The position numbers and the translations under genes are program-made. The notes under the pieces were generated by a model. It was not told the origin of the DNA, made no database searches, and saw only the letters and a program-made list of their open reading frames with translations. Below, piece by piece: positions 8,817-62,856 of a stretch of 64,000 bases of DNA (positions are counted from its first letter, which is position 1; each line of letters opens with the position of its first letter). Origin of the DNA: a virus; IMG/VR virus record IMGVR_UViG_3300021406_000010, positions 1-64,000 of that record, one strand, 5' to 3'.

Positions 8817-11108
8817 TCAGCCTCCCTGGGCCGGGGCGTAGCGCTCGTAGTCGCACAGCGCGTCCCCGTCTTCCGGGCGCACCCCCAGCCGGGCGCGGAT
8901 GCCCACGTGCGGCGGGTCGGCATAGGCGCGGATCGGGTCGCCGGACGTCCAGGACCCCTTCCCGTCCCGGGCCAGGGCCTCGGACTCGGGCAGGTGCTCG
9001 ACCGGTCCCGGGACGGGAAGGCCGGCGGCGCTCGCGGTGACCCGCAGCCCCTCGGCCTCCGCCTCGTCGACCGCCCGCGCCAGCCTGGCCACCTGTCGCA
9101 CCCGGGCGGACCGGCGGAACAGCGCCCCGGGCTGCGGCATGCCCCTGCGGGCGGCGCGGGGCATCCCGTCGCGCTCCTCGTCGGACTCCGGCGGGCGCTG
9201 CGGCTCGTCGCCGGGCGGCCCTTCCCCCTCCGGCGGCGGCCCCTCCGGGGGCGCGTTCGGGTCCATGCCCTCCTCCTGCGCCTGCTGGGCCTCCTCCATG
9301 TCGGCCGGGACCGGCGCGAGGTCGGGCAGCGGCAGCGGCTGCGCGCCCATCCGGTCGATCATCAGCTGCTGCGCCGCCATCGCGGGCGGCACCCCCTCGA
9401 CCTGCGCCATGGGGGCGAAGTCGGCCATCAGGTCGGCGGGGACGGGCAGCCCGGCGTCGCGCAGCGCGATGAACGCGGCCTTCCGGGTCTCCTGCTGGGC
9501 GATGATGTCGGCGACCGCCTCGTCCTGGCACGCCTGCCGCTCCTCGTCCAGGTCAATGCCCAGTCCCCGGGTGCGGGTGCGGGCCGAGATCGGGAGGCCG
9601 GACGCCCGCAGCGCCTCGGTGAACTGCCGGACGACGTCCTCGTCCCGGAAGTTGAGGACCTTGTACTCCGGCTCGGGGACCAGCAGCCTGGGCTGCTCGG
9701 TGATCCGCTGCTCGCCGGTCTCCTCGTCGGCCTCCAGGACCTCCTCCATGACCACGTACCGGCGGCCGTTGCGCTCCTCATAGTCGTAGTGCTCCTGGGC
9801 CTCGGCGACCACCAGTGCCCGCTGCCGGAAGTGCCGCGAGATGTAGCGCTGGTAGTGCGTCATCAGCTGCTCGACCAGCTGCTTGTTCAGGGCGTCGGCG
9901 GCGTACGTCTCGCCCTCTCCCGCGCCCTGCAGGAAGGTGCGGGAGAGGCCGAACACCTGCAGGATCCTGTCCTCGATCCGCTCGAAGTCGGCGGACAGGT
10001 CCGGCATGTTCTCCCGGCCGAACACCGGCTCGATGTCGACCGCGAAGTTGTGGATCAGGGCGCGGAAGTCGCCTGCCAGGGCCGCGTCGAGGGCCAATTC
10101 GAAGTTTTCGAGGTCATCGTCGGTGGGGATCCAGGGGACCTCGGTCCCGAGGTCGGTGGCGGAGGCGCCCAGCTTGCAGAGGATGAGGGGGGTGTACAGC
10201 CGGTCGGCGATCGAGTCCATCGCCGTGTTGAGCATCTCCTGCTGCAGCATGCTCCTCATGGCCCTGGTGAGCAGCGGCAGCCCCCGCAGGTTGAAGGTGT
10301 CGCCCTTGAACTTCAGCTGCCGCAGCAGGATGTTGCTCACCGGCATGAAGGCGTTCTCGGCGGTGTAGGCGGCCAGCTCCGGGTACTCCTGGACCAGCTT
10401 GTTGTACTCCCAGGCGGGCTGGCGGGTGGTGAGGACCTGTCGGATCGTCCACGGCAGCCGGATGAAGTAGCGCGGCTCCTTCAGGAACGGCGACCGCTCC
10501 ACCTTCACGTCGTCGGGGTTGAGCAGCTCCTCATCGTCCCATATGCCCAGGTCCTCATTGAATGTCGCGAATGGCCACGCCTCCCCAGCGGTGTAGTACT
10601 CCCTCCCCATGTCCACCGTGAACTCGTGGTAGTCGAGGTTGTCCTCGCCGAAGAAGTGGTCGGTGTAGAAGTCGGCGAGCCGGGAGTCCTTGCACTTCAG
10701 GCTCATCCCGAGGACCGGGAACTTGGAGAAGATGTCGACGCAGGAGCCGACGATGGGGTCGGTCTGGTAGAGCAGCCGGCAGAAGGCCCTGACCTTAGCG
10801 AGCTCCTCGTTCTGGCTGAAGTCATAGGGGAGGTTGTTCTGCCGCCAGTAGAACAGCGGGTCTCGCGGGCGCCCTGTGGCGAACTGGATGTCGGACCCGC
10901 CACCGCCGGAGGCCCCCGCCCCGCCGGCCAGCGCGGTGCGCCGGGCCAGCATCGCCGAGCGGGCGTTGGCCCGGCGGTTCTTTATCGCCTCCCGCACGTC
11001 GTCGGTCATCTTCGGCTGGCCGTCGGCGCCCATCCCGATGCCGATGGTGGCCCCCAGCTGCCCCGCTACCGATGCCTGCCGGGCGCCCGGCACGTACGCC
11101 ACCCTCAT
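8817..11108 (-). CDS. Portal protein
   Basis: 763 residues from ATG 11108 (after CGGGAGGCAACCGC). It would form the dodecameric ring at the capsid vertex through which DNA passes. Portal-like features are the early segment ending in YQTDPIVGSCVDIFSKF, the basic/aromatic middle with LRGLPLLTRAMRSMLQQE, and ERIEDRILQVFGLSRTFLQG near residue 390, typical of the clip/stem region of large portals. The last 200 residues are acidic and Pro-rich (PPEGPPPEGEGPPGDEP) and include VTASAAG, a possible processing site. The usual partner, terminase, lies about 52 kb away on the same strand. Confidence 0.85.
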   Translation of the reverse strand: MRVAYVPGARQASVAGQLGATIGIGMGADGQPKMTDDVREAIKNRRANARSAMLARRTALAGGAGASGGGGSDIQFATGRPRDPLFYWRQNNLPYDFSQNEELAKVRAFCRLLYQTDPIVGSCVDIFSKFPVLGMSLKCKDSRLADFYTDHFFGEDNLDYHEFTVDMGREYYTAGEAWPFATFNEDLGIWDDEELLNPDDVKVERSPFLKEPRYFIRLPWTIRQVLTTRQPAWEYNKLVQEYPELAAYTAENAFMPVSNILLRQLKFKGDTFNLRGLPLLTRAMRSMLQQEMLNTAMDSIADRLYTPLILCKLGASATDLGTEVPWIPTDDDLENFELALDAALAGDFRALIHNFAVDIEPVFGRENMPDLSADFERIEDRILQVFGLSRTFLQGAGEGETYAADALNKQLVEQLMTHYQRYISRHFRQRALVVAEAQEHYDYEERNGRRYVVMEEVLEADEETGEQRITEQPRLLVPEPEYKVLNFRDEDVVRQFTEALRASGLPISARTRTRGLGIDLDEERQACQDEAVADIIAQQETRKAAFIALRDAGLPVPADLMADFAPMAQVEGVPPAMAAQQLMIDRMGAQPLPLPDLAPVPADMEEAQQAQEEGMDPNAPPEGPPPEGEGPPGDEPQRPPESDEERDGMPRAARRGMPQPGALFRRSARVRQVARLARAVDEAEAEGLRVTASAAGLPVPGPVEHLPESEALARDGKGSWTSGDPIRAYADPPHVGIRARLGVRPEDGDALCDYERYAPAQGG

Positions 11109-15543: not shown

Positions 15544-15562
15544 CAGTCGCCCCGTACTCGCG

Positions 15563-16381: not shown

Positions 16382-16405
16382 GATGCCTCCTGGTCCTTCC
16401 GGGGA

Positions 16406-16699: not shown

Positions 16700-17007
16700 G
16701 CCATCAGCCTCCGCATCGCCCTCATCGTGCCCGGCTCGGACAGCAGCCGGGCCAGCTCGGCGGCCACCTGCCCGTCATCACGGCCCAGGAACAGGGTGAC
16801 CACCCCCTCGCGGTCCTGGTGGGTGACGTTCACCCACCAGGACCATGCCTGGGGGCCGTCCGGCCCGGGGCTGAGGAAGACCTGCAGGTGGTGGCCGGAC
16901 TCGGTGCGCATCGACGGGCCGCACAGCCCGGCGGCCACGACCGAGCCCCAGACAGCCCAGACCCTGAGCAGCGTGCGCGCGTAGAAGGCGTGGTCGCTCC
17001 AGCTCAT
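16696..17007 (-). CDS. E-x-G-H family protein, member 1 (103 residues)
   Basis: TESGHHLQVFL, WSWWVNVTHQD, LFLGRDDGQV and SEPGTMRAMRRLM. Closest to member 2. ATG 17007 overlaps the upstream stop (ATGA). First member in transcription order. Confidence 0.7.
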   Translation of the reverse strand: MSWSDHAFYARTLLRVWAVWGSVVAAGLCGPSMRTESGHHLQVFLSPGPDGPQAWSWWVNVTHQDREGVVTLFLGRDDGQVAAELARLLSEPGTMRAMRRLMA

Positions 17008-46751: not shown

Positions 46752-47378
46752 TCATCCCTCCAGGACCGAGCGGAACGCGGCCACCGTCGAGGCGCGCATC
46801 TGCGCCCGCGTGGCGCCGACGGCGTGCAGGATGGCGGACGGGTGGTAGACGGGCAGCAGCAGCCACGGCCCGGCGTCGTCCCGCAGGCGCCCGCGCCACT
46901 CGGGGAGGCTCCCGGGGTCGCCGGTGACGCAGTTCCAGGCGGGCGTCCCGCAGGTGATGACCACCTGCGGCCCGGTCAGGCCGATCTCGGCCAGCACCCG
47001 GCCGCGCGAGGCCTGCACCTGGAACGGGTAGGGGGTGCGGTTGCCGGGCGGGCGCCACGGCAGCACGTTGGTGACGTAGCACTCCCCCCACGGGATTCCC
47101 GCCTCGCCGAGCATCTTCTGCAGCAGCCGGCCGGCGGGTCCCACGAAGGGGGCGCCCGCTTCCTCTTCCTCCTTGCCCGGGGCCTCCCCGACGATGACGA
47201 CGGGGGCGTTCGGCGGCCCGCAGCCGCGCACCAGGCGCTTCCCGTCCGCTGCCTGCCGCAGGACCGGGATGGCCGCGTACCGCTCCCACAGGGCGTCCAT
47301 GGCCTCCTCGCGGGTGGTCACGCACTTCTCCAGGGCGTATTGCTCGTACGGCTCCACGAGCGACTCCCCGCCGTTCAC
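46752..47378 (-). CDS. Uracil-DNA glycosylase-like protein (family 4/SPO1-type), lacking the iron-sulfur cysteines
   Basis: 208 residues. VVIVGEAPGKEEEEAGAPF, FVGPAGRLLQKML, YVTNVLPWRPPGNRTP and the late VYHPSAIL are the hallmark motifs I, the flanking loop and motif III of family-4 UDGs, which remove uracil from DNA. The usual four Fe-S cysteines are not there: only one Cys lies in the N-terminal region and the P-E-x-x-x-C segment reads PYPFQVQAS. It may protect phage DNA or have another base specificity. GTG start in a GTGA overlap. Confidence 0.8.
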   Translation of the reverse strand: MNGGESLVEPYEQYALEKCVTTREEAMDALWERYAAIPVLRQAADGKRLVRGCGPPNAPVVIVGEAPGKEEEEAGAPFVGPAGRLLQKMLGEAGIPWGECYVTNVLPWRPPGNRTPYPFQVQASRGRVLAEIGLTGPQVVITCGTPAWNCVTGDPGSLPEWRGRLRDDAGPWLLLPVYHPSAILHAVGATRAQMRASTVAAFRSVLEG

Positions 47379-48532: not shown

Positions 48533-48813
48533 ATGCCCGTCACCACCAGGCGGAATGAGCGCTTCACCATCAGGCCGAGTATCTCGTCCAGCTGCCACCG
48601 GGTGGCGGCCGGGACGTCAAGCGCCAGCGGCGGGAGCGCCCCCGGCAGCGCGGACGCGGCCAGGACCACGCCGCTGAATCCCTCCAGGCAGGGAGTCTCC
48701 TCCACCCGCAGGAACTCCTCGCCCCGGTCGCGCAGGATGCGCTCCGCCTGCTCCCTGAGGCCGGGCGCGCAGAACGCCATCGGCGGCGGGACCGGGTCAT
48801 CGGGGCTGGTCAT
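48529..48813 (-). CDS. Hypothetical protein, 94 residues
   Basis: ATG 48813 in an ATGA overlap with the polyvalent gene. FCAPGLREQAERILRDRGEE then FSGVVLAASALPG; compact alpha/beta. No family recognised. Confidence 0.6.
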   Translation of the reverse strand: MTSPDDPVPPPMAFCAPGLREQAERILRDRGEEFLRVEETPCLEGFSGVVLAASALPGALPPLALDVPAATRWQLDEILGLMVKRSFRLVVTGI

Positions 48814-51800
48814 GGCAAGGATCCTCCTCCCAGCGGGAAGCCTACATCGTCCTTGCCACGGCGCACCCGCAGCTCGGCGAACCGCACCCCCACCGGAGGC
48901 CGGGCGGCCGACATGTCCTCGCCATCTTCCAGGAACCCGAGCGTCATGTGCGGCTTCCACTGCCGGTGCTCACTGGCCGACAGGTCTTCCAGGGCCTCCC
49001 GCAGCGCGGTGATGCCAGGCGCGTGCACGTGGGTGAACGCCGGGACCTTGCCGTCGTCGCCCGGCGGGAAGGACCCGACCCCCTGCAGCACCGCGTCCAT
49101 CGGGGGATGCGCGGCGGCGGCGGTCCTGGCCCGGTCGCAGGCGGCGGCGTACGCCTCGTCGCTGACGTCCGCCCCCAGGTAGACCAGGGTGACGTGCTGG
49201 TGGTCGACGGCGCCCGGCAGCGGCTCGACCAGGCCGCTGGGGACGGGCAGGTAGATCATCCCGGAGCGGGGCTTCAGGTCATAGCCGGAGGCGGCGGTGA
49301 CCGGCGGGAGCTGGTGGACGCGCCTGCGGTAGTTGCTGACCAGCGCCATGGCGTCGGCATGGTGGCGCAGGAAGTCGCCACCCGATCCCGGCTCGATCGC
49401 GTCGAGGGCGGTGGCGTAGTGCCGGGCGAACTCCGGGCCGTGCATTACCTCGTCGGGGAGCCTGGCCAGCGGGTCCAGCCCGGCATGGTGGATGTGCAGC
49501 AGGTGCCCCGCCTCGTGGGCGACGGTGCCCCGGCGCCAGTGCTCCGGGTACAGCAGCGCCACCCCGGGGTGCCCGTCGATGAGCGCCACGCTGGAGGCAC
49601 CGCGTCGCGGGTCCTGGTGGGCGATGACGGAAGCGCGGGCCGCCTTGGCCGCCGGGTAGCCGCCAGCCGCCAGGGCGTGGCGCAGGATGGCCGACCCTGC
49701 CTCGCTCGGCATGCCCAGCAAGCCGCTGAAGTCGTCGGGGTCTCGGTCGTCGAGCGGGGCGGCGAGGGCGGGATGGTCAGCGTAGGCGCGATCCTGGGCG
49801 ATGCGGATGACGGCCTTGTGCGGGCGGTCGGCCGCCCAGGCGCTCAGCGGGCTCCACGCTCCACCGCGCGCTGACTCCCGGCGGCGTGGCTCCAACGATG
49901 AGGCCGTCCTGCTTGGAGGCTCATGCGGAACCCTGCTCGCGATCTTGCCCTGGTTCAGGATGATGTGGCCGACGAAGTCCTTGGGCGGGTGGAACTCCAG
50001 CACGTCGGCGCCGGCGTCCCTGGCCTGCTGCACGCTGTCCACCATTGCCTTCAGGCTAGAAAGGCCAGCCTTCCGGACCACGGCGTCTGGCGCCATCTCG
50101 ATGCGGTCCACTTTCGGCCCGTAGAGCCTGGCGACCTCAGGATCGTGGGACACGAACAGCCCGGCGTTGTCCCAGGCGTCGATGCCCGTCAGGGCGCGCT
50201 CCTTGCGCCCGTAACCGTGGTAATAGACGCGAGGGCGGACTGGCTTCCGCGCTGCCCCTGACTTGCGCACCTTCTCCCACGACGCGGCGAATCCCGGGTG
50301 CAGCGGCAGTCCCTTCATCTCCCCTGGGGTGAACCACCCGTGGCCGGAAGACTCCCAGTCGGCGTCCGGGTCGCCGCCGCGCGGGGCGAACCGGGAGGGG
50401 GAGTCCATCACCACGGTCGAATAGGCCCATCCGCCATGATCGTCAGTGTGGGTCCGGACGTGCCGCAGGCCGCCCGGCAGCGGCCCCAGCTCCTCCTCGG
50501 CCTCCCGCCGCGCCCCTTCCTCGGGGGACTCGCCGCGTCGCAGCGCCCCGCCGGGCGTCGACCAGGTGCCCCCGTGCTGGACGTAAGGGGAGCGGTGCTG
50601 CAGGAGGTAGCGGTACTGGCCGTCATCGCCCCGGTGGCGGACGAGCAGCCCGGCCGCGCCCGCCGTGCCCCAGTGGGAATGGCCCTGGGCGCAGGTGGTG
50701 TAGTCTTCGGTGTCGCCCTCGTCGTCATCCTCGCCTGGCATCGAGGTGACTTCCATGCCGATCCGGCGGATGACCCGGACGGGGTGCTTGCTGGTGAAGG
50801 TGCTTGCGTTGAAGTCGTGACGGTAGGGACCGAGCGGCTCTACCTCGTAGACGTACGCCTGCTCTCCCGGTCGCCCGGGACGGCCGAAGGCGGGGATCGC
50901 CCCGGTAGCCAGCTCGGCGAATGTCCGGGCCGATGACTCACGATCGGTGAAGTACACGCTGCCTGGGTCACTCCCCTTCATCGTCCTCTCGTGAGACTGC
51001 GCGGGGTCCAGGACGTGGCCGGGATCATAGGGCTTGTTCGTGCCGTGGAAGAAGCGCTGTGGCTCCTCCTCCAGCGCCGACGTGACGTCCATGCCGTGGC
51101 TGAGGCGATGATGCGTCCAGGCGGGGTCATCCTTCAGGCGCGTCCTGGCCTGGTGATCCGGGGGCGCCCAGGAGATGCCCATCAGCCGGACGGGAGCGCC
51201 CTTGCGGATCGGCACCTCGGCGTGATCCTCGTGCCCCCTCTCGTCATAGCGGGTAGTGCCCAGCTCGTCGAGGACGCCAGGGTCTTCCTCGATGTGCTCG
51301 CGGGCAGGCGCCTGGGCGTGCAACATGACCGGAGTGGCCCCCGGCACGGGCCTGGTGATGAGGTTCCCCTCGGCATACCCCTTGGCCGTCTCCCGGTTCC
51401 CGGACCAGTTCACCCCCGTGCCCTGGCCGACGTGGCGCAGCAGCAGCCGCGCCCGCTGGCGCACCGGCAGGGACTCATCGTGCACCTGCTCATGGACGCC
51501 GGGCGGCAGCAGGACGCTCAGCCCCCGGTGCACCTGGGCTGGCAGCCTGACGTGCTCCCACTCGGTGATCGCCGGGTGCTCGTAGCGCCACATCCGGTGG
51601 TCGGCCTCGTGCCGCCCGCTGCCGCCGTCGTTACGGTCGCTTCCGCAGTAAGGGCACGGGTCCGGCTCGTCTTCGTCGCCTAGCGCTGCCTCGGCCTGCA
51701 GGCCGCCGCCGGTCATGTCGCGGGAGGCAGTGCGGCCTGGCAGGTTCCGCTGGTGGCTCTCCCAGTCGCCGTAGGCGCCCCCGAGGGTCTCGTCTTCGTC

Positions 51801-54713
51801 CCACAGGCGCCTCGGGATGGGCATCAGGTCAGGCTGGCGCCCTAGCGGCACCTCGCGCACGACGCGCAGCGGGTGGCGCGACATCCAGGAGTTCGGGGCC
51901 GGGCCGAACTCAGGGTCGTGCCCGCTGACCTCCTCCCTGTCAGGGAGCACGGGACCAGTCGGCTCGACCTCGAAGACGCGCCCCTGGTGGGGGGTCTTGG
52001 CCTGTGCGGCGAAGTCTGCCGCCTCGTCCCGGTCGTCGGTCGCGTAGACGTGCTCGCGCTTCCTGTCCCAGGTCCTGTCCGGGGAGTTGCTCGGGTGACC
52101 GGGGCTGATCAGGTCGCCTGGCCTGAAGGGGAAGCGGGCACCGTGGTAGATCGGCACGCTCTCGTCGCGGGCGGCCGTGTGCTGCCCGGCCGGCGGCCCG
52201 TCGCCGATCATGTCCCTGAACCGCTGGTGGTGGTAGGTGAAGTCGTCCCCGGCGTGCTTCGAGATCTTGTTGAGCACCGCCCCGTAGGCCCGCGCCCACT
52301 CCGGCCCGTGGGACTCCTCGTCCGGCGCGTGCTCGTTCGGCTTCCGGCCATGGGCGAGCAGGACGACGTGGTGGGCGCACTCGTGGGCGGCGGTGCCGTA
52401 GTCCCACATCTGCGGGTGCAGGGTGACGCCGGGATGGCCGTCCAGCCACGCGGGGTTGGACGTCTTCCGCTCCGGGTGCGGGTGCCGGGAGACGAACGAC
52501 CCTTCCGTCAGCTCGGCCGGGTACCCGGCGTGCCGCAGGAGGTGGCCCACCATCTCATCGCCCTCGTCGCCCGTGGGGAAGGGCATGCCCAGCCTCGGGT
52601 GCTGCCGGCGGACCTCCTGCTGGGCCAGGGCAGTAGCGGCGTGCCACGGCTCGTGCCCGCGCAGGCCCCACTCATCCATCTCCCGGTCCAGGTCGGCGGC
52701 GTCGCGGATAAGCGGCTCGTCCTCGGGGACGTGCGCGGCGGTCTTCCCGAACGGGTCGTCGGCCTCCCCGCGCCGCATGTAGGCGTCATACTCGGCCGGG
52801 ACGGCCTTCCGGTGCTCGCGCCAGTGCCGGTAGCTGGCGAGGTAGTCATCCCCCGGCTGGTAGTCGCCGTGCTCCTGGGTCCGGACGTACGGCACGGGAA
52901 CACCAAGCCGCCAGGCGACCGCCGCCCGGTGGTGGCCGCCTCCTACTTCCCAGGCGCCCTCGTCATGGTGGGCGACCTCAACCGGGTGCTCGAAGCCGTG
53001 CTCGCGGACGTGTGCCTCCAGGTCTGCCATGTAGCGCGGCTCGCGGCGCAGCAGGTCAGCAGTTACCCCGGCGATGTCATGGTGAGGGTAGTCCGTGAAG
53101 GTCAGCCGACTGAGGTCGCCAGGGTGCAGGACGCCAGACTCTGCCTCATCCTCGTCGTCTAGCGCGGCGGTCTTGGGCGCGTGGGCCAGCTCCCGGATGC
53201 GGTGCAGCACCCCGCCCGGAGCGTATGCGACGTACTTTTCTGTCACGTTTGAAACGTCGTCCCAGCCGGTGCCATCCGGCCCGAACGCCATGTCGCGGCC
53301 CGCGTGCAGCCGGTCCCACAGCGCCCTCGCCTCGCGGGTGCGCAGCGGCTCCTCCAGCCGCAGGATGGCCCGCGCCTCGGCCAGCACCGCGCGGGCCTGC
53401 GCCAGGACGGCCGGGGGAAAATCGGCGAGCGAGTGCTGCGGGAGGTGCGGCGGGGAAACGCTCCAGCGCATGGCGGTGACGTCGTAGGCGGCGTAGGGCC
53501 TGATGGCGGTGACGCCGTCCTCGCCGCCGCCGATCGCCTGGTTGCAGTAGGCGGTGAGCGACCAGGCACCCCCGAACGGCGGGTGCCAGTCCGGGTCGTT
53601 GAACCGGGCGCGGAGCACCGCGTTCAGGGACTGCGTGACCTGGTCATCGCTCATGGCCGACAGGGCGGGTGAATGGGACCGGGCGCAGTCATAGTCCGCG
53701 CCTATGAGCACGTCCAGGTCCTGCGCCTCGTCGTTGGGGCGGCTGCCCGCCCACTCCGACGCCGACCCCCCGGCTATGTAGACCCGCAGCCAGGACTGCC
53801 AGTCGCTGCTCGCGATGCCGGAGTCCGCCCGCAGTGCCTGGTCCAGGCGGGTCATGATGGCCTCGCGGACCTCCGGGCGAAGCTGGCGGTCCTCATCGAA
53901 CAGGCGGGGGTCAAGGCCGGTGGTCGCCGAGAAGATCCCGGAGGAGGGCGACCAGCGGGCTGCTGCCGTCCTGTGCCGGTGCAGCTCCGGCATCAGGCAA
54001 CCCCGCGCCCTGGTCACCCGGACCTCCTCCAGCCCGGCATCCCGTGCCGCCATGTAGCGGTGCTCGCCGTCTTCCAGGATGGTCCCGTGCGAGCAGGTTA
54101 CGAGGGAGCCGGGGACCGTGCCATGGTCCTCGGCGTAGCCGCGCAGGGCCGCCTGCTCCCGGGCAGCCCCTGCCGCTGCTTCGTCACCGTATCTCTTCTG
54201 CGGCTCGTCCTCGGGATGGCGGTACTCCCACACGTCGCCCAGGGTCATCCCCGGGTGGTTCATCGAGGCTACGCCGTGCAGGTCATCAAGCGGCACCATC
54301 GCGCCCCGGTCCTGCGGGCCGGGGCCTTCCGCCGCCCCGGTCACGCTTTTGGGCGGAACGTGCTCCCGCAGGACGCGCACGGGATGCCTGGAGCGGTACG
54401 CCTCTGGCTCGATGCCGCCTTCCTGCAGCTCCGGGTCGGGCTCCATCGGCCCGGTGGGCTGGACCACATACACGCGAGGGGTACTCCCGGGGTTCGCGCG
54501 CACCGCCTCGTCAGCGAAGAAGTCCGCCATCTCGTGCGTGGTGGAGGCGTAGACGTGCTCCCTGGCCCCGCCCTCGCCGATGGCCCCGAGGTCATCGTTC
54601 GCGGGAAATCCGGGAGCGACCAGGTCACCGCGCCTGAGCTTGCGGTGTGTGCCGTGATACCAGGGGCCGCCCGCGTCCGCCCCCCCGGTCACGCTTTTGG
54701 GCCAGGCTCCCAT
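48810..54713 (-). CDS. Giant polyvalent protein: Arr x3, ART, ParB-like x2, nucleotidyltransferase, two metallopeptidases, Nudix, 2H phosphoesterase
   Basis: 1,967 residues. In order (rough positions): Arr-type ADP-ribosyltransferase 17-115 (WYHGTH, YVVQPTGP, SRHPVRVL); ParB-like near 210 (EDGEHRYMAARDAG); nucleotidyltransferase near 320 (GGSASEW, DLDVLIG); ParB-like 595 (GGGHHRAAVAWRLG); metallopeptidase 776 (AAHECAHHVV, SHGPEW); Arr 857 (IYHGAR, FEVEPTGP); R-S-E ADP-ribosyltransferase 1063 (VHRGLS, EDHAE); Arr 1224 (FFHGTN, YEVEPLGP); Nudix 1390-1411 (GGALRRGESPEEGARREAEE); another ART-like unit 1498 (VYYHGYG, GLFVSHDPEVARLYG); metallopeptidase 1730 (VAHEAGHLLH, HGPEFARHY); 2H phosphoesterase 1841 and 1922 (HVTLVYLG, HMTLGFLE). 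Such multi-enzyme phage proteins are thought to enter the host with DNA and act on host defences. Acidic linkers with TA[AS] may be cleavage sites. Confidence 0.85.
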   Translation of the reverse strand: MGAWPKSVTGGADAGGPWYHGTHRKLRRGDLVAPGFPANDDLGAIGEGGAREHVYASTTHEMADFFADEAVRANPGSTPRVYVVQPTGPMEPDPELQEGGIEPEAYRSRHPVRVLREHVPPKSVTGAAEGPGPQDRGAMVPLDDLHGVASMNHPGMTLGDVWEYRHPEDEPQKRYGDEAAAGAAREQAALRGYAEDHGTVPGSLVTCSHGTILEDGEHRYMAARDAGLEEVRVTRARGCLMPELHRHRTAAARWSPSSGIFSATTGLDPRLFDEDRQLRPEVREAIMTRLDQALRADSGIASSDWQSWLRVYIAGGSASEWAGSRPNDEAQDLDVLIGADYDCARSHSPALSAMSDDQVTQSLNAVLRARFNDPDWHPPFGGAWSLTAYCNQAIGGGEDGVTAIRPYAAYDVTAMRWSVSPPHLPQHSLADFPPAVLAQARAVLAEARAILRLEEPLRTREARALWDRLHAGRDMAFGPDGTGWDDVSNVTEKYVAYAPGGVLHRIRELAHAPKTAALDDEDEAESGVLHPGDLSRLTFTDYPHHDIAGVTADLLRREPRYMADLEAHVREHGFEHPVEVAHHDEGAWEVGGGHHRAAVAWRLGVPVPYVRTQEHGDYQPGDDYLASYRHWREHRKAVPAEYDAYMRRGEADDPFGKTAAHVPEDEPLIRDAADLDREMDEWGLRGHEPWHAATALAQQEVRRQHPRLGMPFPTGDEGDEMVGHLLRHAGYPAELTEGSFVSRHPHPERKTSNPAWLDGHPGVTLHPQMWDYGTAAHECAHHVVLLAHGRKPNEHAPDEESHGPEWARAYGAVLNKISKHAGDDFTYHHQRFRDMIGDGPPAGQHTAARDESVPIYHGARFPFRPGDLISPGHPSNSPDRTWDRKREHVYATDDRDEAADFAAQAKTPHQGRVFEVEPTGPVLPDREEVSGHDPEFGPAPNSWMSRHPLRVVREVPLGRQPDLMPIPRRLWDEDETLGGAYGDWESHQRNLPGRTASRDMTGGGLQAEAALGDEDEPDPCPYCGSDRNDGGSGRHEADHRMWRYEHPAITEWEHVRLPAQVHRGLSVLLPPGVHEQVHDESLPVRQRARLLLRHVGQGTGVNWSGNRETAKGYAEGNLITRPVPGATPVMLHAQAPAREHIEEDPGVLDELGTTRYDERGHEDHAEVPIRKGAPVRLMGISWAPPDHQARTRLKDDPAWTHHRLSHGMDVTSALEEEPQRFFHGTNKPYDPGHVLDPAQSHERTMKGSDPGSVYFTDRESSARTFAELATGAIPAFGRPGRPGEQAYVYEVEPLGPYRHDFNASTFTSKHPVRVIRRIGMEVTSMPGEDDDEGDTEDYTTCAQGHSHWGTAGAAGLLVRHRGDDGQYRYLLQHRSPYVQHGGTWSTPGGALRRGESPEEGARREAEEELGPLPGGLRHVRTHTDDHGGWAYSTVVMDSPSRFAPRGGDPDADWESSGHGWFTPGEMKGLPLHPGFAASWEKVRKSGAARKPVRPRVYYHGYGRKERALTGIDAWDNAGLFVSHDPEVARLYGPKVDRIEMAPDAVVRKAGLSSLKAMVDSVQQARDAGADVLEFHPPKDFVGHIILNQGKIASRVPHEPPSRTASSLEPRRRESARGGAWSPLSAWAADRPHKAVIRIAQDRAYADHPALAAPLDDRDPDDFSGLLGMPSEAGSAILRHALAAGGYPAAKAARASVIAHQDPRRGASSVALIDGHPGVALLYPEHWRRGTVAHEAGHLLHIHHAGLDPLARLPDEVMHGPEFARHYATALDAIEPGSGGDFLRHHADAMALVSNYRRRVHQLPPVTAASGYDLKPRSGMIYLPVPSGLVEPLPGAVDHQHVTLVYLGADVSDEAYAAACDRARTAAAAHPPMDAVLQGVGSFPPGDDGKVPAFTHVHAPGITALREALEDLSASEHRQWKPHMTLGFLEDGEDMSAARPPVGVRFAELRVRRGKDDVGFPLGGGSLP
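54336..54705. repeat. 19-bp direct repeat flanking an Arr module
   Basis: CCCGGTCACGCTTTTGGGC occurs at 54336-54354 and again at 54686-54704. On the minus strand both encode PKSVTG and bound the first Arr module of the 1,967-residue protein. Confidence 0.75.
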
Positions 54714-57700
54714 GACCCTTCCGGGCCGTCGCCCGCCGCCGCGATCACCCGCAGCGCCAGGTCATGCACCGCCTCGGCGACCTCCCGGGCGACCGGGGCG
54801 TCCTCCAGCCTGACGGCCACCGCCAGCAGCCGCTCCCCGGTGAACCGCAGGAACCCCGGGATGGCGGCGAGCAGCTCCCGTGCCTCGTCCGCAGCAGTGC
54901 CGGCGGTGATGGCGGCCGGGACCACGTCGGCGACGGGGGAGATGACCATGCCCTGCGAGGCGGACTCCTCGTTGTCGCCGACCCGGCGGATGACGCGCAG
55001 CGGATGCGCGGACTTCCACTCATCGCCGTTGTAGCCGCCCTTCACCTCGCCGGTCGGCGCCACCTCGTAGACGTGGCCGCCAGCGTCCCGGGCGTAGTCC
55101 CGCGCCCCGGTCAGGTCGGTGGTGAAGTGGTTGAACTGCGAGCGCGGTCCCTCGTCGCCCCACGCGTTGGTCGGATGGCCGACAGTGACCTGGCTGCCCT
55201 CGCGCAGCCGCTTCGACCGGCTGCCATGGTAGAAGGGGCCGGTGACCTGCTGCTCCTTGCTGACGTAACCGCCCTCCGGGCCGTGCGTCTGGTACCGCCA
55301 GGTGAACGACGGGGGACCAGGTGGCTCCAGGGCGGCCTCGTGCCGGGAACCGCCGTCGTCCTCGTCCGGCTCGTGCAGGTGCCGGTACTCCTCCGGGACC
55401 GGCATCTCCCGCTTGACGTCGAACCCGGCGCGGCTGCGCACGTCATCGTCGTTGTTGCCGCGCGGCCACCCGTCCTTCAGGTAGAACGGGTCCTTCTCCA
55501 GGTCATCGGCCTTCGGCGTCACCTGGTAGACGCGCGGCGGACGGCCGAGCGTCAGGCTGGCCTTCTCCGCGTAGCCCCAGGCGTGCGCCAGGCCCGCCGT
55601 GGCGTACCCGTGCGTGCCCTCGTGGTCCATCCCGAAAGCGCGGCCACGGCCGGGAGTGACCTCCTGCAGGCCCTCCTCGGTGGTGCCATGGTAGTAGGGG
55701 CCCCTCGCGGGCAGCCCCTGCCGGTGGCGCTCGACGTTCTCGTCCAGGCGCGCCTGCCTGCCTGCAGCCGCCTCCGGGCTGACGTCGAAGGCGTGCGAGC
55801 AGTTAGCGCAGGTGGCCGTGCTCCCGCGACTGCCCGGCTGCCGCTCGCGGCTCCCGCACTGAGGGCACCTCTCCTGCGTCATCAGGGCCAGCTCGCGCTC
55901 GAACTCCGGGGATCGCCTGACCGGCTGGTGCCCCTCCCCGGGGAAGTGATGGACGGGGGCCTTGTGGCTGTCTGAGCAGTTCACGCAGAAGGGGGCCTCA
56001 CCGGGAACGCGCTCCTCGGCCCCGGACGCCTCATCGCGGTGGCGCGCCCACAGGAACCCGTCCAGGTCGCGCTCTGGCGCGATCCTGGTGTGCGGGCCGC
56101 CTTTGGTGGCGGCCGTCACCTCATGCCCCTCCCCGAAGTGCGCCTCCAGCTCCCGGGCCGCCGTGTGCTGCCGTGGCTCGTCCGCGTCAGCGGCATGCGG
56201 GAACCCCGGGTAGGAGGTCCGCTTCCGCTCGCCGCTCGGGTAGTTCAGCGGGGCGGGCCGGTCCTGCGCCTCCGCGCCGTGGAACGGCCCCCTGCGCCCG
56301 TCGGCGAACGGCTCGTCCTCGTGCGGGGAGTAGGCGACGTAGGCGCGGATGCTGGGCCAGTGAGCCGCGTTGGCGCCGTTCGCCCGGTGGTGCCCGTCGG
56401 CCACCTGGAACACGCCGTGGCGGTGCACCAGGACCACCGGGGGAACCTTGTCGCGCTGCCGGTGGTCCCTGAACCCGTCGGCGGCGCGCTTCACGCGGGG
56501 GTCCCACGGCTCGGCCTTCATGTAGTCGATGCGGCTGGTGTCCACCGTGCGCGGGCGGAACCGGATCTCTGACCCCGGGTAGCCGGTGAGCGGGTGCAGT
56601 TCACCGGTGGACTCGGCATAGGGATGTCCTGGCCGGTCGTGGTACAGCTCGGCAGCAGCATCGCCGATGTCCCAGCCGTATCCGTTGCCCGTGTCCGGCC
56701 CGAATCCCTCAGGCGCCCCGTGGACTTCAGGGTCCCCGTACAGGTGCGGGTGCCGCCTCCCGATCTCCTCCCAGGTGAGACCGTCATCGTCTCGGCCAGC
56801 CTCCAGGACGGCCTGGCGGTGCTGCGGGGTGCCCCCCAGCTCGGTCAGCGGCCTGCGGCAGTAGTGGCAGCGCAGCTCCGCCGACGGGTCGCGGACCTCG
56901 TACCGGCCCGAAGACCGGCCAGCAGGCTCCCCGAAGGGGCCGTTCAGCTGGGGCATGTCCCCGCCGGGGAAGATGCCGTGCTCGTCGTGCTCCGGCTCGC
57001 CCTCGGCGAACGTGTGGTGCACCCCGATGCCATGGGCGCGGTCCTCAGCGTGCGACTGCTCGCAGGTGAGGTTGCAGTACCTTCCCTGGTCGTACTCGCC
57101 CCGGTCCCAGCGCTCGTCCCGGGCGCGGTCCCGGGCCAGGGCCGCCTCCACCTCCGGGGAGTGGCCGTCCTCCGGCCAGTGACGCACCTCGGCGCCCTCG
57201 CGGCGGGAGCAGTGCAGGCACTGCGGCACCTCATCTGGGTCGCGCTCGGTGATACCGTCGTCCTCACCCCTGCGCATGGCCCAGGCGAAGCCATGCTCAT
57301 CCTGCTCAGGCGGCATCCGCCGGTAGGACTGATGGTCCTCGTCATCCATGTCGTCCCAGGGCTCGCCATCGTCGTCCTCGCCGCTCGCGGCAGCCTCCAG
57401 GGCGGCAGTGCGCCCGTCGTCATTGCCCTCCAGGTAGCGCATGGCCTCGTCGTGCCCCGGCCCGGCGAACATCCGGTCGATATCGCGGCCGGCATCCCGC
57501 CCGGCCCTCTCGCGGCCCGCCAGCTCGTGGTGCTCGGCCAGCGCCGCGTGCCAGTCGTCGGAAGTGCCCCAGCGGTAGTGGTGCCGGGTGCTATCCGGCG
57601 TGAACGGCTGGTCGCCCTCCACGTGCGGCGGCGTTCCCGGGTCGAGTTCCTTGTGCCGCCAGGCGTCCTCGGTGACCTCCGTCGGGCCGGAGCGCGAGGT

Positions 57701-58461
57701 GACCTTCCCGTGCAGGATGTCCGCCATCGATGACGGGCACTCGGCGCTGTCCGTGCACTCCGCCTGGGTGTGGGGACGCGGCCAGGTCAGCCGGTCGTTG
57801 CAGTACTGGCACTCCTCGCCCCGCACCGGGTCGCCGTACCGGCGCATCCGGCCCCAGGAGGCCCCCTCCATGTCGGAGACGTCCTCCCGGGCCTCGTGCT
57901 CCCACCAGTTCTTGCACGACGGGCACGAGTAGCCTCCCTCGCCCGACCAGGCGTAGCGCGCGTCGTCCGGGCCGCTGACCGCCTCCATCCGGGCGACGGC
58001 CCGCTCGTGCTCGCCGGTGCGGGCGTGCTCCGCCTCGATCCTCGGCCGCAGGTCATCCCAGTACGTCTTGCCCTCGCCGCCAGCGGCCTCGTCATTTGCG
58101 GCAGCAGCTTCCAGGGCGGCCGTGTGCCCGCGCAGGTCGGGAACCTCGCGGATCACCTCGGCAGGATCCTGGGTCGCCCAGTCATGCCCTTGCGCGTCGC
58201 TGCGGTGGCCGATCCAGCCGACCGGCCGTACCTCGTAGACGTGGCGCCCGTACCCCCTTGCCCCCTTGCCGTGCCCGCCGGGCCCCCAGTCGTCCTCGGG
58301 GTGCTCCGTCATGTAGACGTGCTCCAGCGGCTCGTCGGTGAAGTTGCCGGGGTGCCCTGGCTCGACGTGGCCGCCGGGCGCGATCTCGTGCCTGGTCCCG
58401 TGGTAGAGCGGTCGCGGGGCGTCCAGCGGGTGCCGGTGGTCCTCCAGGCCAGAGTCGCTGG
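54689..58461 (-). CDS. Polyvalent protein, second part: Arr x3, ParB-like and zinc-ribbon modules (frame-shifted from the upstream ORF)
   Basis: About 1,250 residues in a frame with no good start codon near its first sensible residue, so it is probably the continuation of the ORF starting at 62856. Modules in order: Arr (LYHGTRHEI, YEVRPVG) at the start; zinc ribbons (CPSCKNWW, CQYC, CLHC, CHYC); ParB-like near 56400 (VFQVADGHHRANG); more Cys pairs (CVNC, CPQCGSRE, CANC); Arr near 55690 (YYHGTTEEG, YQVTPKA); Arr near 55225 (FYHGSRSKR, YEVAPTGE, AHPLRVIRRV). Linkers repeat HTAALEAAA and RTAALEAAA. The stop overlaps the next gene by 25 bases. Confidence 0.7.
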
Positions 58462-61400
58462 GTAGTAGCGGTCCTGCGCGCCTTCCGGCCCCCGGGCGTG
58501 GATGACGCCGTAGGTGCCGTGGTTGTAGCTCCACCCGGCCGGGGACGGGGGCGTCCATTCCGGTTCGCCGTTCTCCTCAAAGTGGGCGACCACCGGCGGG
58601 AGGTGCAGGCTGCTCTCGCTCGGCGTCAGCGGCCGGAACGGCCTGCTGGCCTCCGGGTCGTGCAGCACGCGCTCGAACTCCCCGTTCCTCCTGGGAGTGC
58701 CGCCGAAGAAGTCGGTGTGCTCCGAGAGCTGGAAGACGTCCGGCCACTGCCGCTCGCCGGGGAGGCCGCGCTGGGTTTCGTGCTGGTGCGTCGAGTTGGT
58801 GCGCTGGTGCTCACCGGCGTGCCACCGCTCCTGGTTCTTCGGGGACATGTGCAGGTCGGAGGTGCGGGAGTCCATCCCGTGCATGTGGTGCATGTGGTCG
58901 CGCAGCTCGCCCTCCCTGGGCGGCTCCACGTAGGGCAGCGCCGCGCGCCTGGCGGCCTCCGCCGCCGCCTGGCTCCTCTCGTACGCGTCGTCCTCATCCT
59001 CGGTGTCGCGGCCTTCATCATCGTCATCCTCGTGGCCACCCTGGATGTCGTCGTCCCAATCGTCCTCGTCCATGGCAGTGGCTTCCAGGACAGCCTCGTG
59101 GTGGCGGCCCTCCTCGTCGAACAACGGGTCCATGTGCCGCTGGCCGCCGGGCCACTGGCGCTGCGCCTCGTCCTCGGGCAGGCACTCGGCGCCGGTGTGC
59201 CGCTGGGTGACGTCCACCTGGTCCTCACCGAAGGCGATGGCACACCGGTTGGCATCCTTCTCCGAGCTGAGGCCATCACACGGCGACTTCTCGAAGGCGT
59301 TCCCGTACACGATCCCGTCATGGCCCTGAGACCGCAGGTGGGCGATATGCCGCTGGGCTATCTCGTACTTCTCCGGGTGGGCGTTCAGCCAGCCGGTCGC
59401 GTACGGATGCACCTGCCGGTGCTGGCGCATGTAGTGCTCGCTCGGCTCGTCCTGGCGGCGCATCCGCTCGCCGTCGTCGGCGTAGTCGTAGGCCACCCCG
59501 ACGTCAGACCCTTCGTCGTGGTACTCCTTCAGCTCCGGGTCCAGGTGCCGCTCGATGTGGTTGCCGGCCTTCCACTCCCGCTCGTATGCCTCCTGGTCCA
59601 TGTCGTGCTCGGAGGCGTAATGCTTCGGGCTCCTCATGAGGAGCCGGGCGTGGATGACGTTCTCCTGCGGGCCGCCCTGCGGGAAGCCGCCGGATGGGTG
59701 GTCGCCGTGGGCGAACTGCTCGGCCACCTTGTGGCAGGCGGTGAAGTGGTGGCCCAGCAGCGTGTTCCAGTGCGACGTGTCGTCGGGGTCGTCCTCGTAC
59801 TCCAGGTCGCTGTACGGCCGGTCGCCGCCGAAGTCCCCGAACCGGTGCGGGGAGCCGTGGAACCACTCCAGTCCCCGGGTGTGCGGGTTCGGGTACGGGG
59901 CGCGGCCCGGTGCGGGATCATGGAGATCATGGCGCTCGCCCTCCGAGGCGAGCGAGGATCGCAACGGGTACGCGGCTGCCGCTGCGGTCACCGGCCTTGT
60001 CCTTCCCGTGCTGGGGCGCGCCGCGACGGCCTCGCGCCGGGCGGGGGCCGAGGGAGGCCCCTCCGGCGGGTCGCGGCGCTCGCGCCCCTTCAGCCCGCGC
60101 GCCCACTTCTTGCCCTGTTCCGTCTGGTCCTTCGAGTGCCTCGCCTTCGGGGACATCTCCTGCGACCAATCCCACATCGCGGTGGCCAGGCCCCGGGCCT
60201 GGTGGTCGCGCCCGTCGCCGAGCAGGGACCCCCTGGCGGTGTCGTCCTCGTCGCCGGCCACGTCCATGTGGTGGACCCAGCCGGTGGCGCCGAACCAGTT
60301 CAGGCGGCCGACGACACGGCCCTCGGGGGTGTGCGCCTCGATGAAGTGGCGGGGCTTACGCTCCCCCATGTCCTCCGTGCGGTAGCGCAGCGTGTAGTAC
60401 CCGAAGGGCCGCTCATCGCCGTCCCGCTGGCGCGAGGCGCGCTTAGGCGACAGGGGCGGCTCCTCGTGCGGTGCCACGATCGCGGGCGGCTCGTCGCGGG
60501 CCGCCTCCCTCGGCGGGACGCGCATCTTGTGGCTGCAGTACTCGTGCATGTGCAGGGCCTCGCGCGGCTCGCCCCAGTAGCCCCACTCCTGCAGGTCGTC
60601 GCCGTTCCCGTTGCGGACGTCCTGCGCCCGGACGGTGGTGCCCCAGATGTGGTACCTGCCAGGGTGGTCAGCGGGCAGGCTGCCCGACGGCGGGTCGTTC
60701 ACCTCGGCGGCAGTCTGCTCGGCGTACTTCCGGTTCAGGGCCACCCAGTCGCCTGGGTTGAACTGGCCCCGCTTGGCGTTGCGGGACTCCGGGTTGAGCG
60801 CCGGGGCGGCCCGCCAGATGCGGACCTTCGCGCCGGGCTTGCCGCGCGCCCTGCGGATCATGCGCAGGTGGTCATGGCCGAACTGGCCCTCGCCGAAGTC
60901 ATACCACTCAGGGTGGTCGTAGACGTCGGCGGGGAAAGTGTCGCCCTGCGTCAGGTCGTGCAGCGGCGCAGCCTCGTCGTTCGGGCGGTGGCTGACGCCG
61001 TAGTCCTCCGGGGTGGCCGCCGCCTCGAAGTGGGCCACCACCTCCGCCACCGGGGCGGCGGGCGGCTCGGCCGCCGCCTGGTGCCGCTGCTTCCACCGCC
61101 GGATGCGCGGGTCCTCCTGCTCCAGGTGCTCGCGCGTGCCGCCCGCCTCGCCATGCCAGGCGTTCAGGGCCTCCTCCACGTGCCGGGGACCGACGTGGGC
61201 GGCCAGCTCCCCGGTCTTGGGGTCGGTGTCCAGCCCGGTGACGTCGTGGGCGTACTCCCCGGTGGCCTGGTGGTGCAGCTGCAGGTACATGCCGCCGAAG
61301 CTGCGGCCCGTCCAGCCGGACGGCCTCCCAGACGGAAGGCGGTGCTCCAGTTCGTAGTACGGCTCGCCGTCGTCCCTGAACCTGATCTTGCCGCGCCCGC

Positions 61401-62856
61401 CCTCGTAGCGGGTCATCAGCTCCTGGCCGTTGCGCAGCGCCCGGTCGGACTGGCGGGACTCCTCGGTGCCGCCGGGGTCCTCGATGTCCTGGACCTTCCT
61501 GAACAGAGCATCACCGAACGCCTTCCCCGCCTCCTGGGACTGGCGCTTGTGGTCGATGTAGTCCCGGCTGGCCTCGGCCTGGTGCTGGGTCTCGAAGCCC
61601 CGGGCGTTGCCGGTCATCGCGTGGCGGCCCGCGTTGTCGACGACGTGGAAGCGATTGGTCTGCGGGTGGCGGACCACCTCGTACGGGCCGTGCCACTCCT
61701 CGCTAGGGCTGTAGCCCTGCGGCTCGTGCACGCGCGGCTCCGGCCGGGCGGCCAGCTCCAGGTCATAAGCGCTGACCCGGGAGTGCGGGAACTGCGGCGG
61801 GTTGCGGCGCAGGTGCTCCCGGTAGGCCTCGTGCAGCCCGACGGCGTCGACCTCTCCGGGATGCGTGCGGCGGACCTCGTCCGGCTCGCGACGGGTGGTC
61901 AGCCGGTACCAGTCCTGCATGGCGCTGCTGTTGCCGGAGAACATGCCACGGCTGCCGTCGTAGGCGCCCTCGTTCGGGTGGGTGGACCTGCCCTCGCGGT
62001 CCACGACGTGGTAGGTGGCGTTGCGCTCCCGCTCGCTGTAGTCGCGGCCCTTCTCGCGCTCCGGGTCCCGGGTCACGTAGTAGGGGCCGTGGTCGGGGGC
62101 GGTCAGGTGCGGGTGCTCCTCCAGCCTGCGGTTACCCGGGTCGCGCTGGCCATCGCGCATCCGGGCCAGGAAGTGCCCCGCCACCGGGGACTCGCCCGTG
62201 GGGGTGGCGAACACGTCCTCGCTCTCGGGAACATCGGCGGCTGCCTCGAAGTGGCCGAGCAGGTCATCGCCCGCGCTGGCCTTGCGGAGTTGCCGCTGAT
62301 GCGCTTCCATGCGCTCATAGTCCTCACGCGTGAAGTCCCAGTCCGGCCCCCATCCGTGCGGGCTGCCCAGGTAATGCCTGCCCTCCTGGTAATCCCCATG
62401 GTCGCCGCTCCACTCCTCGTGCAGCCTGACGACGCGCAACGGATGATCAGTAATCCGCGATCCACCGTGTCGCAGCTGGCCCCGCCTGGTGCCCCCAAGG
62501 TTCTCCGGGTCATGCATGTGCGGGCCTGTCGGCTCTACCTCATAGACTCGCGCTCGCCCGGACTCCCCGTACCGGTCAGCTCCTGGCGGCTCGTGGGCAC
62601 CGTCAGCGAACCAGCGAGCCTGGCCGGGGTTGACCGACATGTAGAGGGGCTTGCCTGTCACTGACTGCCACTTCGGCAGCCTGCCCACGTGCTCGTAGTT
62701 CCGGTGCGCGGCGGCTTCCTCGCCAGTCAGCAGGTCCCCGGGATGCAGTTCGTACCGCGTGCCGTGAAAGAAGGGGCCGCGCTCCTCGTCGAGGAAGCCT
62801 GCCCGCCGCTCATCGCCCATGCCCTCAACGATAGCAAGAAAACCTGCATTAGTCAT
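58309..62856 (-). CDS. Polyvalent protein, first part: Arr, two further ART-like modules, GNAT
   Basis: ATG 62856 is preceded by GGGAGG and the stem-forming leader; a second ATG at 62820 follows a promoter element by seven bases and could give a leaderless form. Modules: Arr 30-145 (FFHGTRYEL, YEVEPTGP, DHPLRVVRL); two copies of an HGPYxV...HVVDxxGR segment (about 260-300 and 390-415); ART-like 685-765 (VRIWRAAP, FNPGDWVALNRKYAEQ, DDLQEWGYWG); GNAT acetyltransferase 815-915 (VVGRLNWFG, HQARGLATAMWDWS); MuF-type ART 995-1220 (WFHGSPHRF, GHDGIVYGNAFE, AIAFGEDQVDV). Real coding ends near 58462; the last 50 residues of this frame are Thr/Arg/Ser-rich and out of frame with the next Arr module. Confidence 0.75.
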   Translation of the reverse strand: MTNAGFLAIVEGMGDERRAGFLDEERGPFFHGTRYELHPGDLLTGEEAAAHRNYEHVGRLPKWQSVTGKPLYMSVNPGQARWFADGAHEPPGADRYGESGRARVYEVEPTGPHMHDPENLGGTRRGQLRHGGSRITDHPLRVVRLHEEWSGDHGDYQEGRHYLGSPHGWGPDWDFTREDYERMEAHQRQLRKASAGDDLLGHFEAAADVPESEDVFATPTGESPVAGHFLARMRDGQRDPGNRRLEEHPHLTAPDHGPYYVTRDPEREKGRDYSERERNATYHVVDREGRSTHPNEGAYDGSRGMFSGNSSAMQDWYRLTTRREPDEVRRTHPGEVDAVGLHEAYREHLRRNPPQFPHSRVSAYDLELAARPEPRVHEPQGYSPSEEWHGPYEVVRHPQTNRFHVVDNAGRHAMTGNARGFETQHQAEASRDYIDHKRQSQEAGKAFGDALFRKVQDIEDPGGTEESRQSDRALRNGQELMTRYEGGRGKIRFRDDGEPYYELEHRLPSGRPSGWTGRSFGGMYLQLHHQATGEYAHDVTGLDTDPKTGELAAHVGPRHVEEALNAWHGEAGGTREHLEQEDPRIRRWKQRHQAAAEPPAAPVAEVVAHFEAAATPEDYGVSHRPNDEAAPLHDLTQGDTFPADVYDHPEWYDFGEGQFGHDHLRMIRRARGKPGAKVRIWRAAPALNPESRNAKRGQFNPGDWVALNRKYAEQTAAEVNDPPSGSLPADHPGRYHIWGTTVRAQDVRNGNGDDLQEWGYWGEPREALHMHEYCSHKMRVPPREAARDEPPAIVAPHEEPPLSPKRASRQRDGDERPFGYYTLRYRTEDMGERKPRHFIEAHTPEGRVVGRLNWFGATGWVHHMDVAGDEDDTARGSLLGDGRDHQARGLATAMWDWSQEMSPKARHSKDQTEQGKKWARGLKGRERRDPPEGPPSAPARREAVAARPSTGRTRPVTAAAAAYPLRSSLASEGERHDLHDPAPGRAPYPNPHTRGLEWFHGSPHRFGDFGGDRPYSDLEYEDDPDDTSHWNTLLGHHFTACHKVAEQFAHGDHPSGGFPQGGPQENVIHARLLMRSPKHYASEHDMDQEAYEREWKAGNHIERHLDPELKEYHDEGSDVGVAYDYADDGERMRRQDEPSEHYMRQHRQVHPYATGWLNAHPEKYEIAQRHIAHLRSQGHDGIVYGNAFEKSPCDGLSSEKDANRCAIAFGEDQVDVTQRHTGAECLPEDEAQRQWPGGQRHMDPLFDEEGRHHEAVLEATAMDEDDWDDDIQGGHEDDDDEGRDTEDEDDAYERSQAAAEAARRAALPYVEPPREGELRDHMHHMHGMDSRTSDLHMSPKNQERWHAGEHQRTNSTHQHETQRGLPGERQWPDVFQLSEHTDFFGGTPRRNGEFERVLHDPEASRPFRPLTPSESSLHLPPVVAHFEENGEPEWTPPSPAGWSYNHGTYGVIHARGPEGAQDRYYPATLAWRTTGTRWTPRDRSTTGPGTRSRPAATSSQGTPATSPTSRWSTST
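58455..58470 (-). other. Reading-frame break between two halves of a polyvalent gene
   Basis: The good protein sequence passes from frame ...GAQDRYYP into frame ...SDSGLEDHRHPLDAP around a run of three C on the minus strand (58460-58462). One extra C would join the halves into a single protein of about 2,700 residues. No canonical slippery heptamer is visible. Confidence 0.6.
62829..62852 (-). promoter_or_regulatory. Promoter element inside the 5' end of the polyvalent gene
   Basis: Minus strand AATGCAGGTTTTCTTGCTAT with TATCGT seven bases before ATG 62820. Where translated it encodes NAGFLAIV. Confidence 0.5.

What the first reader, a model, noticed from the sequence alone, without database searches (positions are those of the whole stretch)
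48810..62856. A 14-kb array of ADP-ribosyltransferase-rich polyvalent proteins
Three linked reading frames encode about 4,700 residues with at least seven Arr-type modules (YHGT...VxPTGP...HPxRV), four other ART-fold units, four ParB-like or zinc modules, a GNAT, a nucleotidyltransferase, two HExxH-type metallopeptidases, a Nudix hydrolase and a 2H phosphoesterase. Polyvalent phage proteins are a known concept, but this density of NAD-using domains together with enzymes that handle ADP-ribose (Nudix) and cyclic phosphates (2H) suggests a self-contained ADP-ribose chemistry delivered into the host.
Basis: partly seen in the sequence, partly recalled or inferred. Interest (0 to 1): 0.92.

Follow-up and report, generated by a model that had tools for sequence, protein, structure and literature searches.

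The report
Phage effector polyprotein rich in ADP-ribosyltransferases
A large virus of actinobacteria carries, in its head-building gene cluster, two giant chains of many different enzyme modules (about half of them ADP-ribosyltransferases), joined by short linkers that look like cutting sites for the virus's own head protease, so it probably loads a kit of host-takeover enzymes into its head and injects them.

Summary
At 48810-62856 (minus strand) there are seven Arr-type modules. The weakest folds as Arr (best PDB hit 2hw2), and five of seven keep the catalytic H-Y-D triad. Other ART-type units, Nudix, 2H phosphoesterase, nucleotidyltransferase, two HExxH zincins and ParB-like modules are also present. 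The 'three frames' are probably two genes with a frame switch near 58.44 kb. The window is part of a 166-kb actinophage-type myovirus contig; the array lies directly behind the terminase. At least seven related contigs carry a different shuffle of the same modules there. These are polyvalent proteins (Iyer 2017), a known class. New here: inter-module linkers carry [K/R/H]TA[A/S/G] (35 seen, 2.5 expected; 12 vs 1.1 in held-out phages; permuted motifs not enriched). KTA or RTA is also the most over-represented tripeptide in head-cluster proteins of cultured relatives Finch and Stormageddon, and related sites recur at fixed places in portal, capsid protein and protease-scaffold. Best reading: an effector polyprotein cut by the head-maturation protease, packaged and injected. 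A 'self-contained ADP-ribose chemistry' is not specifically supported; the constant core is nucleotidyltransferase plus 2H. Cleavage, packaging and NAD use are untested.

The parts
58309..62856 (-). Array frame A1 (ATG 62856): Arr, 340-aa conserved region, R-S-E-like ART, GNAT-like, YHGS..DGIVYGN ART
54689..58460 (-). Array frame A2, probably the continuation of A1 after a frame switch near 58.44 kb; three Arr, ParB-like, zinc modules, conserved C-terminal helical domain
48810..54692 (-). Array protein A3 (1960 aa): three Arr, two ParB-like, nucleotidyltransferase, two zincins, R-S-E ART, ART-like, Nudix, 2H
62413..62775 (-). Arr module 1, H-Y-D kept
58139..58411 (-). Arr module 2, lies at the frame switch, D not kept
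55343..55705 (-). Arr module 3 (weakest by sequence), H-Y-D kept, Arr fold by prediction
54962..55237 (-). Arr module 4, Y to H, D not kept; stand-alone homologue in Streptomyces phage Frankenweenie gp344
54354..54665 (-). Arr module 5, H-Y-D kept
51846..52154 (-). Arr module 6, H-Y-D kept
50754..51056 (-). Arr module 7, H-Y-D kept
51138..51563 (-). ART-type module with R / W[ST] / E[VI]P triad
60547..60900 (-). second R-S-E-like ART module (PHROG 2579 match)
59284..59796 (-). ART-PolyVal-like module (YHGS ... DGIVYGN), shared with relatives' arrays
49938..50270 (-). ART-like module (YYHGYGR ... DVLEFHPP), motif only
   Evidence: inspection
53190..53957 (-). Pol-beta-type nucleotidyltransferase (GGS...DLD), present in all six other or same-lineage arrays searched with the profile
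   Evidence: no PDB sequence match
52206..52673 (-). zincin-like metallopeptidase 1 (HECAH)
   Evidence: (SprT-like, below cut-off)
49338..49841 (-). zincin-like metallopeptidase 2 (HEAGH)
50289..50702 (-). Nudix hydrolase
   Evidence: E 7e-13
48825..49229 (-). 2H phosphoesterase (two HxT motifs), present in every array searched with the profile
52815..53123 (-). ParB-like module
   Evidence: PHROG E about 0.001-0.003
53961..53972 (-). linker motif RTAA before the nucleotidyltransferase
53163..53174 (-). linker motif KTAA after the nucleotidyltransferase
52734..52745 (-). linker motif KTAA before zincin 1
52170..52181 (-). linker motif HTAA between zincin 1 and Arr
51723..51734 (-). linker motif RTAS after Arr
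49899..49910 (-). linker motif RTAS before zincin 2
58115..58126 (-). linker motif HTAA(LEAAA) after Arr module 2
57401..57412 (-). linker motif RTAA(LEAAA)
56156..56167 (-). linker motif HTAA
63190..64000 (-). large terminase subunit (g105, runs to 65310 of the contig), directly upstream of the array
8817..11108 (-). portal protein; RRTA just before the conserved core, at the same place in relatives
3..3593 (-). g001, another polyvalent late protein (ParB-like, SWIM-like, GNAT)

Best explanation
The array encodes two polyvalent effector polyproteins of an actinobacterial myovirus. They are made with the head proteins. I infer that they are taken into the prohead and cut between modules at [K/R/H]TA[A/S/G] by the phage's head-maturation protease (g220), the same enzyme that would trim scaffold, portal and capsid protein. 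The released single-domain enzymes (about eleven ART-fold units plus nucleotidyltransferase, 2H, Nudix, zincin, ParB-like and GNAT-like) would be ejected with the DNA and act on host proteins, nucleic acids or nucleotide signals. The repeated (L/V)xHFE linker and N-terminal motif may be a head-targeting signal. Shown here: module content, position, shuffling, and a non-chance linker motif shared with head proteins. Inferred: cleavage, packaging, injection, catalysis, targets.
For: Position behind TerL in this and related contigs. Motif: 10 seen vs 1.05 expected in the window array; 35 vs 2.45 in shuffled linkers while permuted forms give 0-7; 3 of 38 inside domains covering 45% of the sequence, P 9e-7; held-out contigs L058 and L030 12 vs 1.15, 0 of 1000 shuffles. 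KTA/RTA is the top tripeptide of the head-cluster proteins in Finch (17 vs 1.2) and Stormageddon (12 vs 1.4), not enriched in their tail and replication proteins. RRTA/RKTA precedes the portal core, RVA[SA] lies at the capsid-protein N-terminus and KTAA/RTAA flanks protease domain, coiled coil and C-tail in relatives. Codons at the motif vary like background, so selection is on protein. g220 matches a head-maturation protease family. Rhodococcus phage E3 gp70, which contains the array's GNAT-like module (E 3e-16), is annotated a structural protein. ARTs packaged in myovirus heads are documented (PMC9503650; T4 Alt, PMC9026906).
Against: No cleavage or virion data exist for this phage. The motif is short and was first noticed by eye in the same data. 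The window phage's own portal (RRTALA), capsid protein (RVAS) and g001 do not carry the exact four-residue form. The more distant Myrna shows it only weakly (RTA 6 vs 1.3). Known T4/phiKZ-type head proteases cut after glutamate, so a basic-T-A specificity would be different. Two of seven Arr copies lack the catalytic Asp, and one lies on a frame switch.
Confidence: 0.6

Rival explanations
1. Polyvalent proteins packaged whole, or processed by their own zincin modules (the scheme of Iyer 2017), with the linker motif serving as a zincin site or only as a flexible hinge.
For: Zincin modules occur in several arrays; P1 DdrB is processed and N4 vRNAP packaged whole (PMC5512222).
Against: The motif is equally present where no HExxH module was found: L006, L030, Finch and Stormageddon head proteins, and in portal and scaffold proteins. 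A mere hinge would not need fixed residue order.
Confidence: 0.2
2. The linker motif is a DNA-level recombination hook that drives module exchange, with no role in the protein.
For: Modules are shuffled between phages.
Against: Codons at the motif are as varied as in the rest of the array; the motif also sits at fixed positions in single-copy head proteins.
Confidence: 0.05
3. The modules act in a self-contained ADP-ribose circuit: ARTs add ADP-ribose, Nudix and 2H remove or recycle it.
For: ART-fold, Nudix and 2H modules in one operon.
Against: Nudix is absent from about half of the arrays while ARTs stay; nucleotidyltransferase and 2H are the constant pair; no macro or ADP-ribosylglycohydrolase domain turned up in the Pfam scans.
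Confidence: 0.12
4. The Arr modules confer rifamycin-type antibiotic resistance on the infected host.
For: Arr fold and mostly intact triad; Arr genes in Gordonia and Microbacterium phages were read this way (PMC9503650).
Against: Seven divergent copies (23-34% identity to the reference copy within the window) in late genes, inside polyproteins; the DPN motif residue N86 that contacts rifampin through water (PMC6092378) is replaced in most copies.
Confidence: 0.1

Closest known systems
Polyvalent proteins of phages and conjugative elements (Iyer et al. 2017, PMC5512222)
   Same: Many unrelated effector domains in one chain; ART, zincin, ParB, Pol-beta nucleotidyltransferase, 2H and GNAT types; late-gene position; extensive mosaicism.
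   Different: Arr-class ARTs dominate; inter-module linkers carry one repeated motif shared with the portal, capsid and scaffold proteins, pointing to processing by the head protease in trans.
T4 Alt and internal proteins with gp21 protease (PMC9026906)
   Same: Head-packaged ART and small effectors trimmed by the prohead protease; short N-terminal targeting sequences.
   Different: Separate genes in T4, not a polyprotein; gp21 cuts after L/I-x-E, here the candidate site is K/R/H-T-A.
SPN3US/phiKZ ejection proteins (PMC10052503)
   Same: Large protein load in the head, many substrates of one head protease.
   Different: Different protease motif and unrelated protein modules.
Rifampin ADP-ribosyltransferase Arr (2HW2)
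   Same: Fold and most catalytic residues.
   Different: Repeated modules within phage polyproteins; rifampin-contact residue mostly not kept; substrate unknown.
Head-cluster proteins of Rhodococcus phage Finch (gp12, 13, 16, 17), Gordonia phage Stormageddon (gp8, 9, 12, 13) and Rhodococcus phage E3 gp70
   Same: Same late position and gene order, same KTA/RTA linkers; E3 gp70 shares the GNAT-like module.
   Different: Fewer and other modules, no Arr found there.

Membership tests
Polyvalent proteins (Iyer 2017) | several functionally unrelated effector domains in one polypeptide | tested here: met
Polyvalent proteins (Iyer 2017) | encoded among late/head genes of a phage | tested here: met
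   directly behind TerL; portal, protease, capsid genes on same strand
Polyvalent proteins (Iyer 2017) | delivered with the DNA into the host | not testable with these tools
   no virion data
Arr (PF12120) | profile match over the curated cut-off | tested here: met
   all three frames
Arr (PF12120) | Arr fold | tested here: met
   weakest copy: 2hw2 E 7e-5, prob 1.0
Arr (PF12120) | catalytic H19-Y49-D84 | tested here: met
   full triad in 5 of 7 copies; two copies lack D
Arr (PF12120) | modifies rifamycins | not testable with these tools
   needs assay; contact residue N86 mostly not kept
R-S-E ADP-ribosyltransferase (module 51138-51563) | R, S/T, E triad | tested here: met
   R13, W53-S/T, E116
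R-S-E ADP-ribosyltransferase (module 51138-51563) | ART fold | tested here: inconclusive
   top PDB matches all ARTs but best E 0.09
Head-maturation protease substrates | shares a site motif with head proteins of the same phages | tested here: met
Head-maturation protease substrates | cleaved in vivo at that site | not testable with these tools
   no proteomics
Self-contained ADP-ribose circuit | writer and eraser modules kept together across relatives | tested here: not met
   Nudix in only 4 arrays, Arr variable

The most novel reading that the evidence does not exclude
A phage lineage keeps a bar-coded effector cassette: any enzyme module flanked by a [K/R/H]TA[A/S/G] cut site (and perhaps an HFE targeting tag) can be slotted into a polyprotein, carried into the prohead, released by the capsid protease and injected, so cargo can be exchanged freely without evolving new packaging signals.
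Probability: 0.5. Interest if true: 0.78.

Novelty: new variant of a known kind. Interest (0 to 1): 0.62.

Why it matters
Polyvalent proteins are known from sequence, but how their domains are packaged and released is mostly guessed. A motif shared by effector linkers and by portal, capsid and scaffold proteins would tie the effectors to the head protease and would let one predict injected effectors, and their exact boundaries, from sequence in a whole group of actinophages, including cultured ones on laboratory hosts. It also offers many compact ART-fold domains for finding bacterial targets.

Tried and rejected
DNA similarity to the phage collection: no match. PDB sequence search for the nucleotidyltransferase and zincin families: nothing useful. 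Foldseek for the R-S-E ART: ART-only top ranks but not significant against PDB; best viral hits are ParB-annotated mycobacteriophage proteins. RNA elements in the array region: none at gathering score. DNA-level repeat as cause of the linker motif: rejected by codon variety. Array absent in G006: my first gene call suggested so, but a lower-GC array is there and the caller missed it. Three separate genes: rejected for two, with a frame switch. Bacterial genomes holding the nucleotidyltransferase: only distant relatives in Streptomyces and Nonomuraea, so the host is not identified.

Full report
What is there. The window is bases 1-64000 of a 166,488-base IMG/VR virus record, 71% GC. My own gene calls show late genes on the minus strand. 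TerL (g105) matches terminases of Gordonia, Rhodococcus and cluster C mycobacteriophages over about 88% of its length at 30-33% identity, and the capsid protein matches theirs at 56-58%. A head-maturation-protease family match lies in g220. The gene order TerL, array, g095-g093, portal, g001, protease-scaffold, capsid protein parallels that of Stormageddon and Finch, where TerL is followed by large hypothetical proteins, portal, a SWIM-type protein related to g001, protease and capsid protein. (The contig ends lie between g001 and g220, so that last join is inferred from the relatives.) The host is not identified; an actinobacterium is inferred.

The array. Codon-usage scores move from frame A1 to frame A2 at about 58.43-58.46 kb without a start codon of coding quality, and relatives have a single frame with the same C-terminal domain, so the array is most likely two genes. 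Pfam, a lineage profile and an alignment of 16 Arr modules give seven Arr copies in the window. The weakest was modelled and matches only Arr structures significantly. H is kept in all, Y in six, D in five; roles of these residues are from PMC6092378. A second ART class with R, W-S/T and E conserved in ten copies ranks with ARTs in Foldseek but weakly. Nudix and 2H are firm. The nucleotidyltransferase (GGS, DLD invariant), zincins and one ParB-like module rest on motifs and weak profile matches. Stand-alone homologues of two modules exist (Frankenweenie gp344; LuckySocke gp186), which supports their being autonomous units.

Relatives. At least seven other contigs carry an array at the same place (L006, L007, L028, L029, L030, L031, L058; L018 in part) built from the same modules in different orders and numbers. 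Nucleotidyltransferase and 2H are the constant pair; Arr, R-S-E ART, DGIVYGN-ART, Nudix, zincin, ParB-like and GNAT-like units vary. This is the mosaicism described for polyvalent proteins (PMC5512222).

The linker motif. Junctions between modules repeatedly read [K/R/H]TA[A/S/G], and in the first protein also (L/V)xHFE, sometimes joined as HTAALLEHFEAAE. Counts: window array 10 against 1.05 expected; all linkers 35 against 2.45 in shuffled linkers, with permuted versions at 0-7; only 3 of 38 copies inside recognised domains that cover 45% of the sequence (P 9e-7), HFE 0 of 20 (P 7e-6). Because the pattern was first seen by eye, I tested it on two contigs not used to find it: 12 against 1.15, none of 1000 shuffles. 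An unbiased tripeptide scan puts KTA first in Finch head-cluster proteins (17 vs 1.2), RTA first in Stormageddon (12 vs 1.4) and TAA first in the window (20 vs 4.4), while tail and early proteins show nothing of the kind. In relatives RRTA or RKTA stands just before the portal core, RVA[SA] at the capsid-protein N-terminus, and KTAA or RTAA between protease domain, coiled coil and C-tail of the protease-scaffold. Codons at the motif are varied. Zincin modules are absent from several proteins that have the motif.

Interpretation. A short motif in flexible linkers of exactly the proteins that a head protease is expected to meet, and of the effector array, is best explained as the protease site. 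T4 Alt and the internal proteins are the precedent for head-packaged effectors trimmed by such a protease (PMC9026906), SPN3US for a large load of ejection proteins (PMC10052503). E3 gp70, which holds one of the array's modules, is annotated as structural; I do not know the experimental basis of that annotation. What each effector does is open. Rifamycin modification is unlikely to be the main role given copy number and loss of a rifampin-contact residue.

Limits. Gene calls are home-made. Motif specificity is inferred from enrichment and position, not from cut termini. Domain borders used in the linker test come from homology between arrays. Myrna, a more distant relative, shows the motif weakly. 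Only two structure predictions were possible.

Noticed in passing
window about 58430-58460: Coding frame switches from A1 to A2 inside what relatives encode as one frame; assembly error, mutation or programmed frameshift.
   Followed up: partly
L030 (G006), reverse-complement positions about 4480-5120: The nucleotidyltransferase module is interrupted by an insertion encoding a NUMOD4/HNH-like protein; no Rfam intron match.
   Followed up: partly
L007 15350-15940: HNH-like reading frame lies inside the second array gene of this relative.
   Followed up: no
window 12450-17007, minus strand: A run of small genes sharing an ESGH motif and, in some, an N-terminal LIRHFA like the array's HFE motif.
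   Followed up: no
contig 158775-162770 (L012 15775-19770): Protease-scaffold protein carries an inserted DUF7178 domain and zinc ribbons.
   Followed up: no
window 17598-41525, plus strand: A block of small plus-strand genes ending in a cytosine-methyltransferase-like gene splits the late cluster between array and portal; L006 and L007 also have such a methyltransferase-like gene downstream of their arrays.
   Followed up: no
window 46752-47378: Uracil-DNA glycosylase family gene conserved behind the array in relatives.
   Followed up: no
L058 10983 on: Another relative (160,709-base contig) with several repeats of LLxHFGA in its second array protein.
   Followed up: partly
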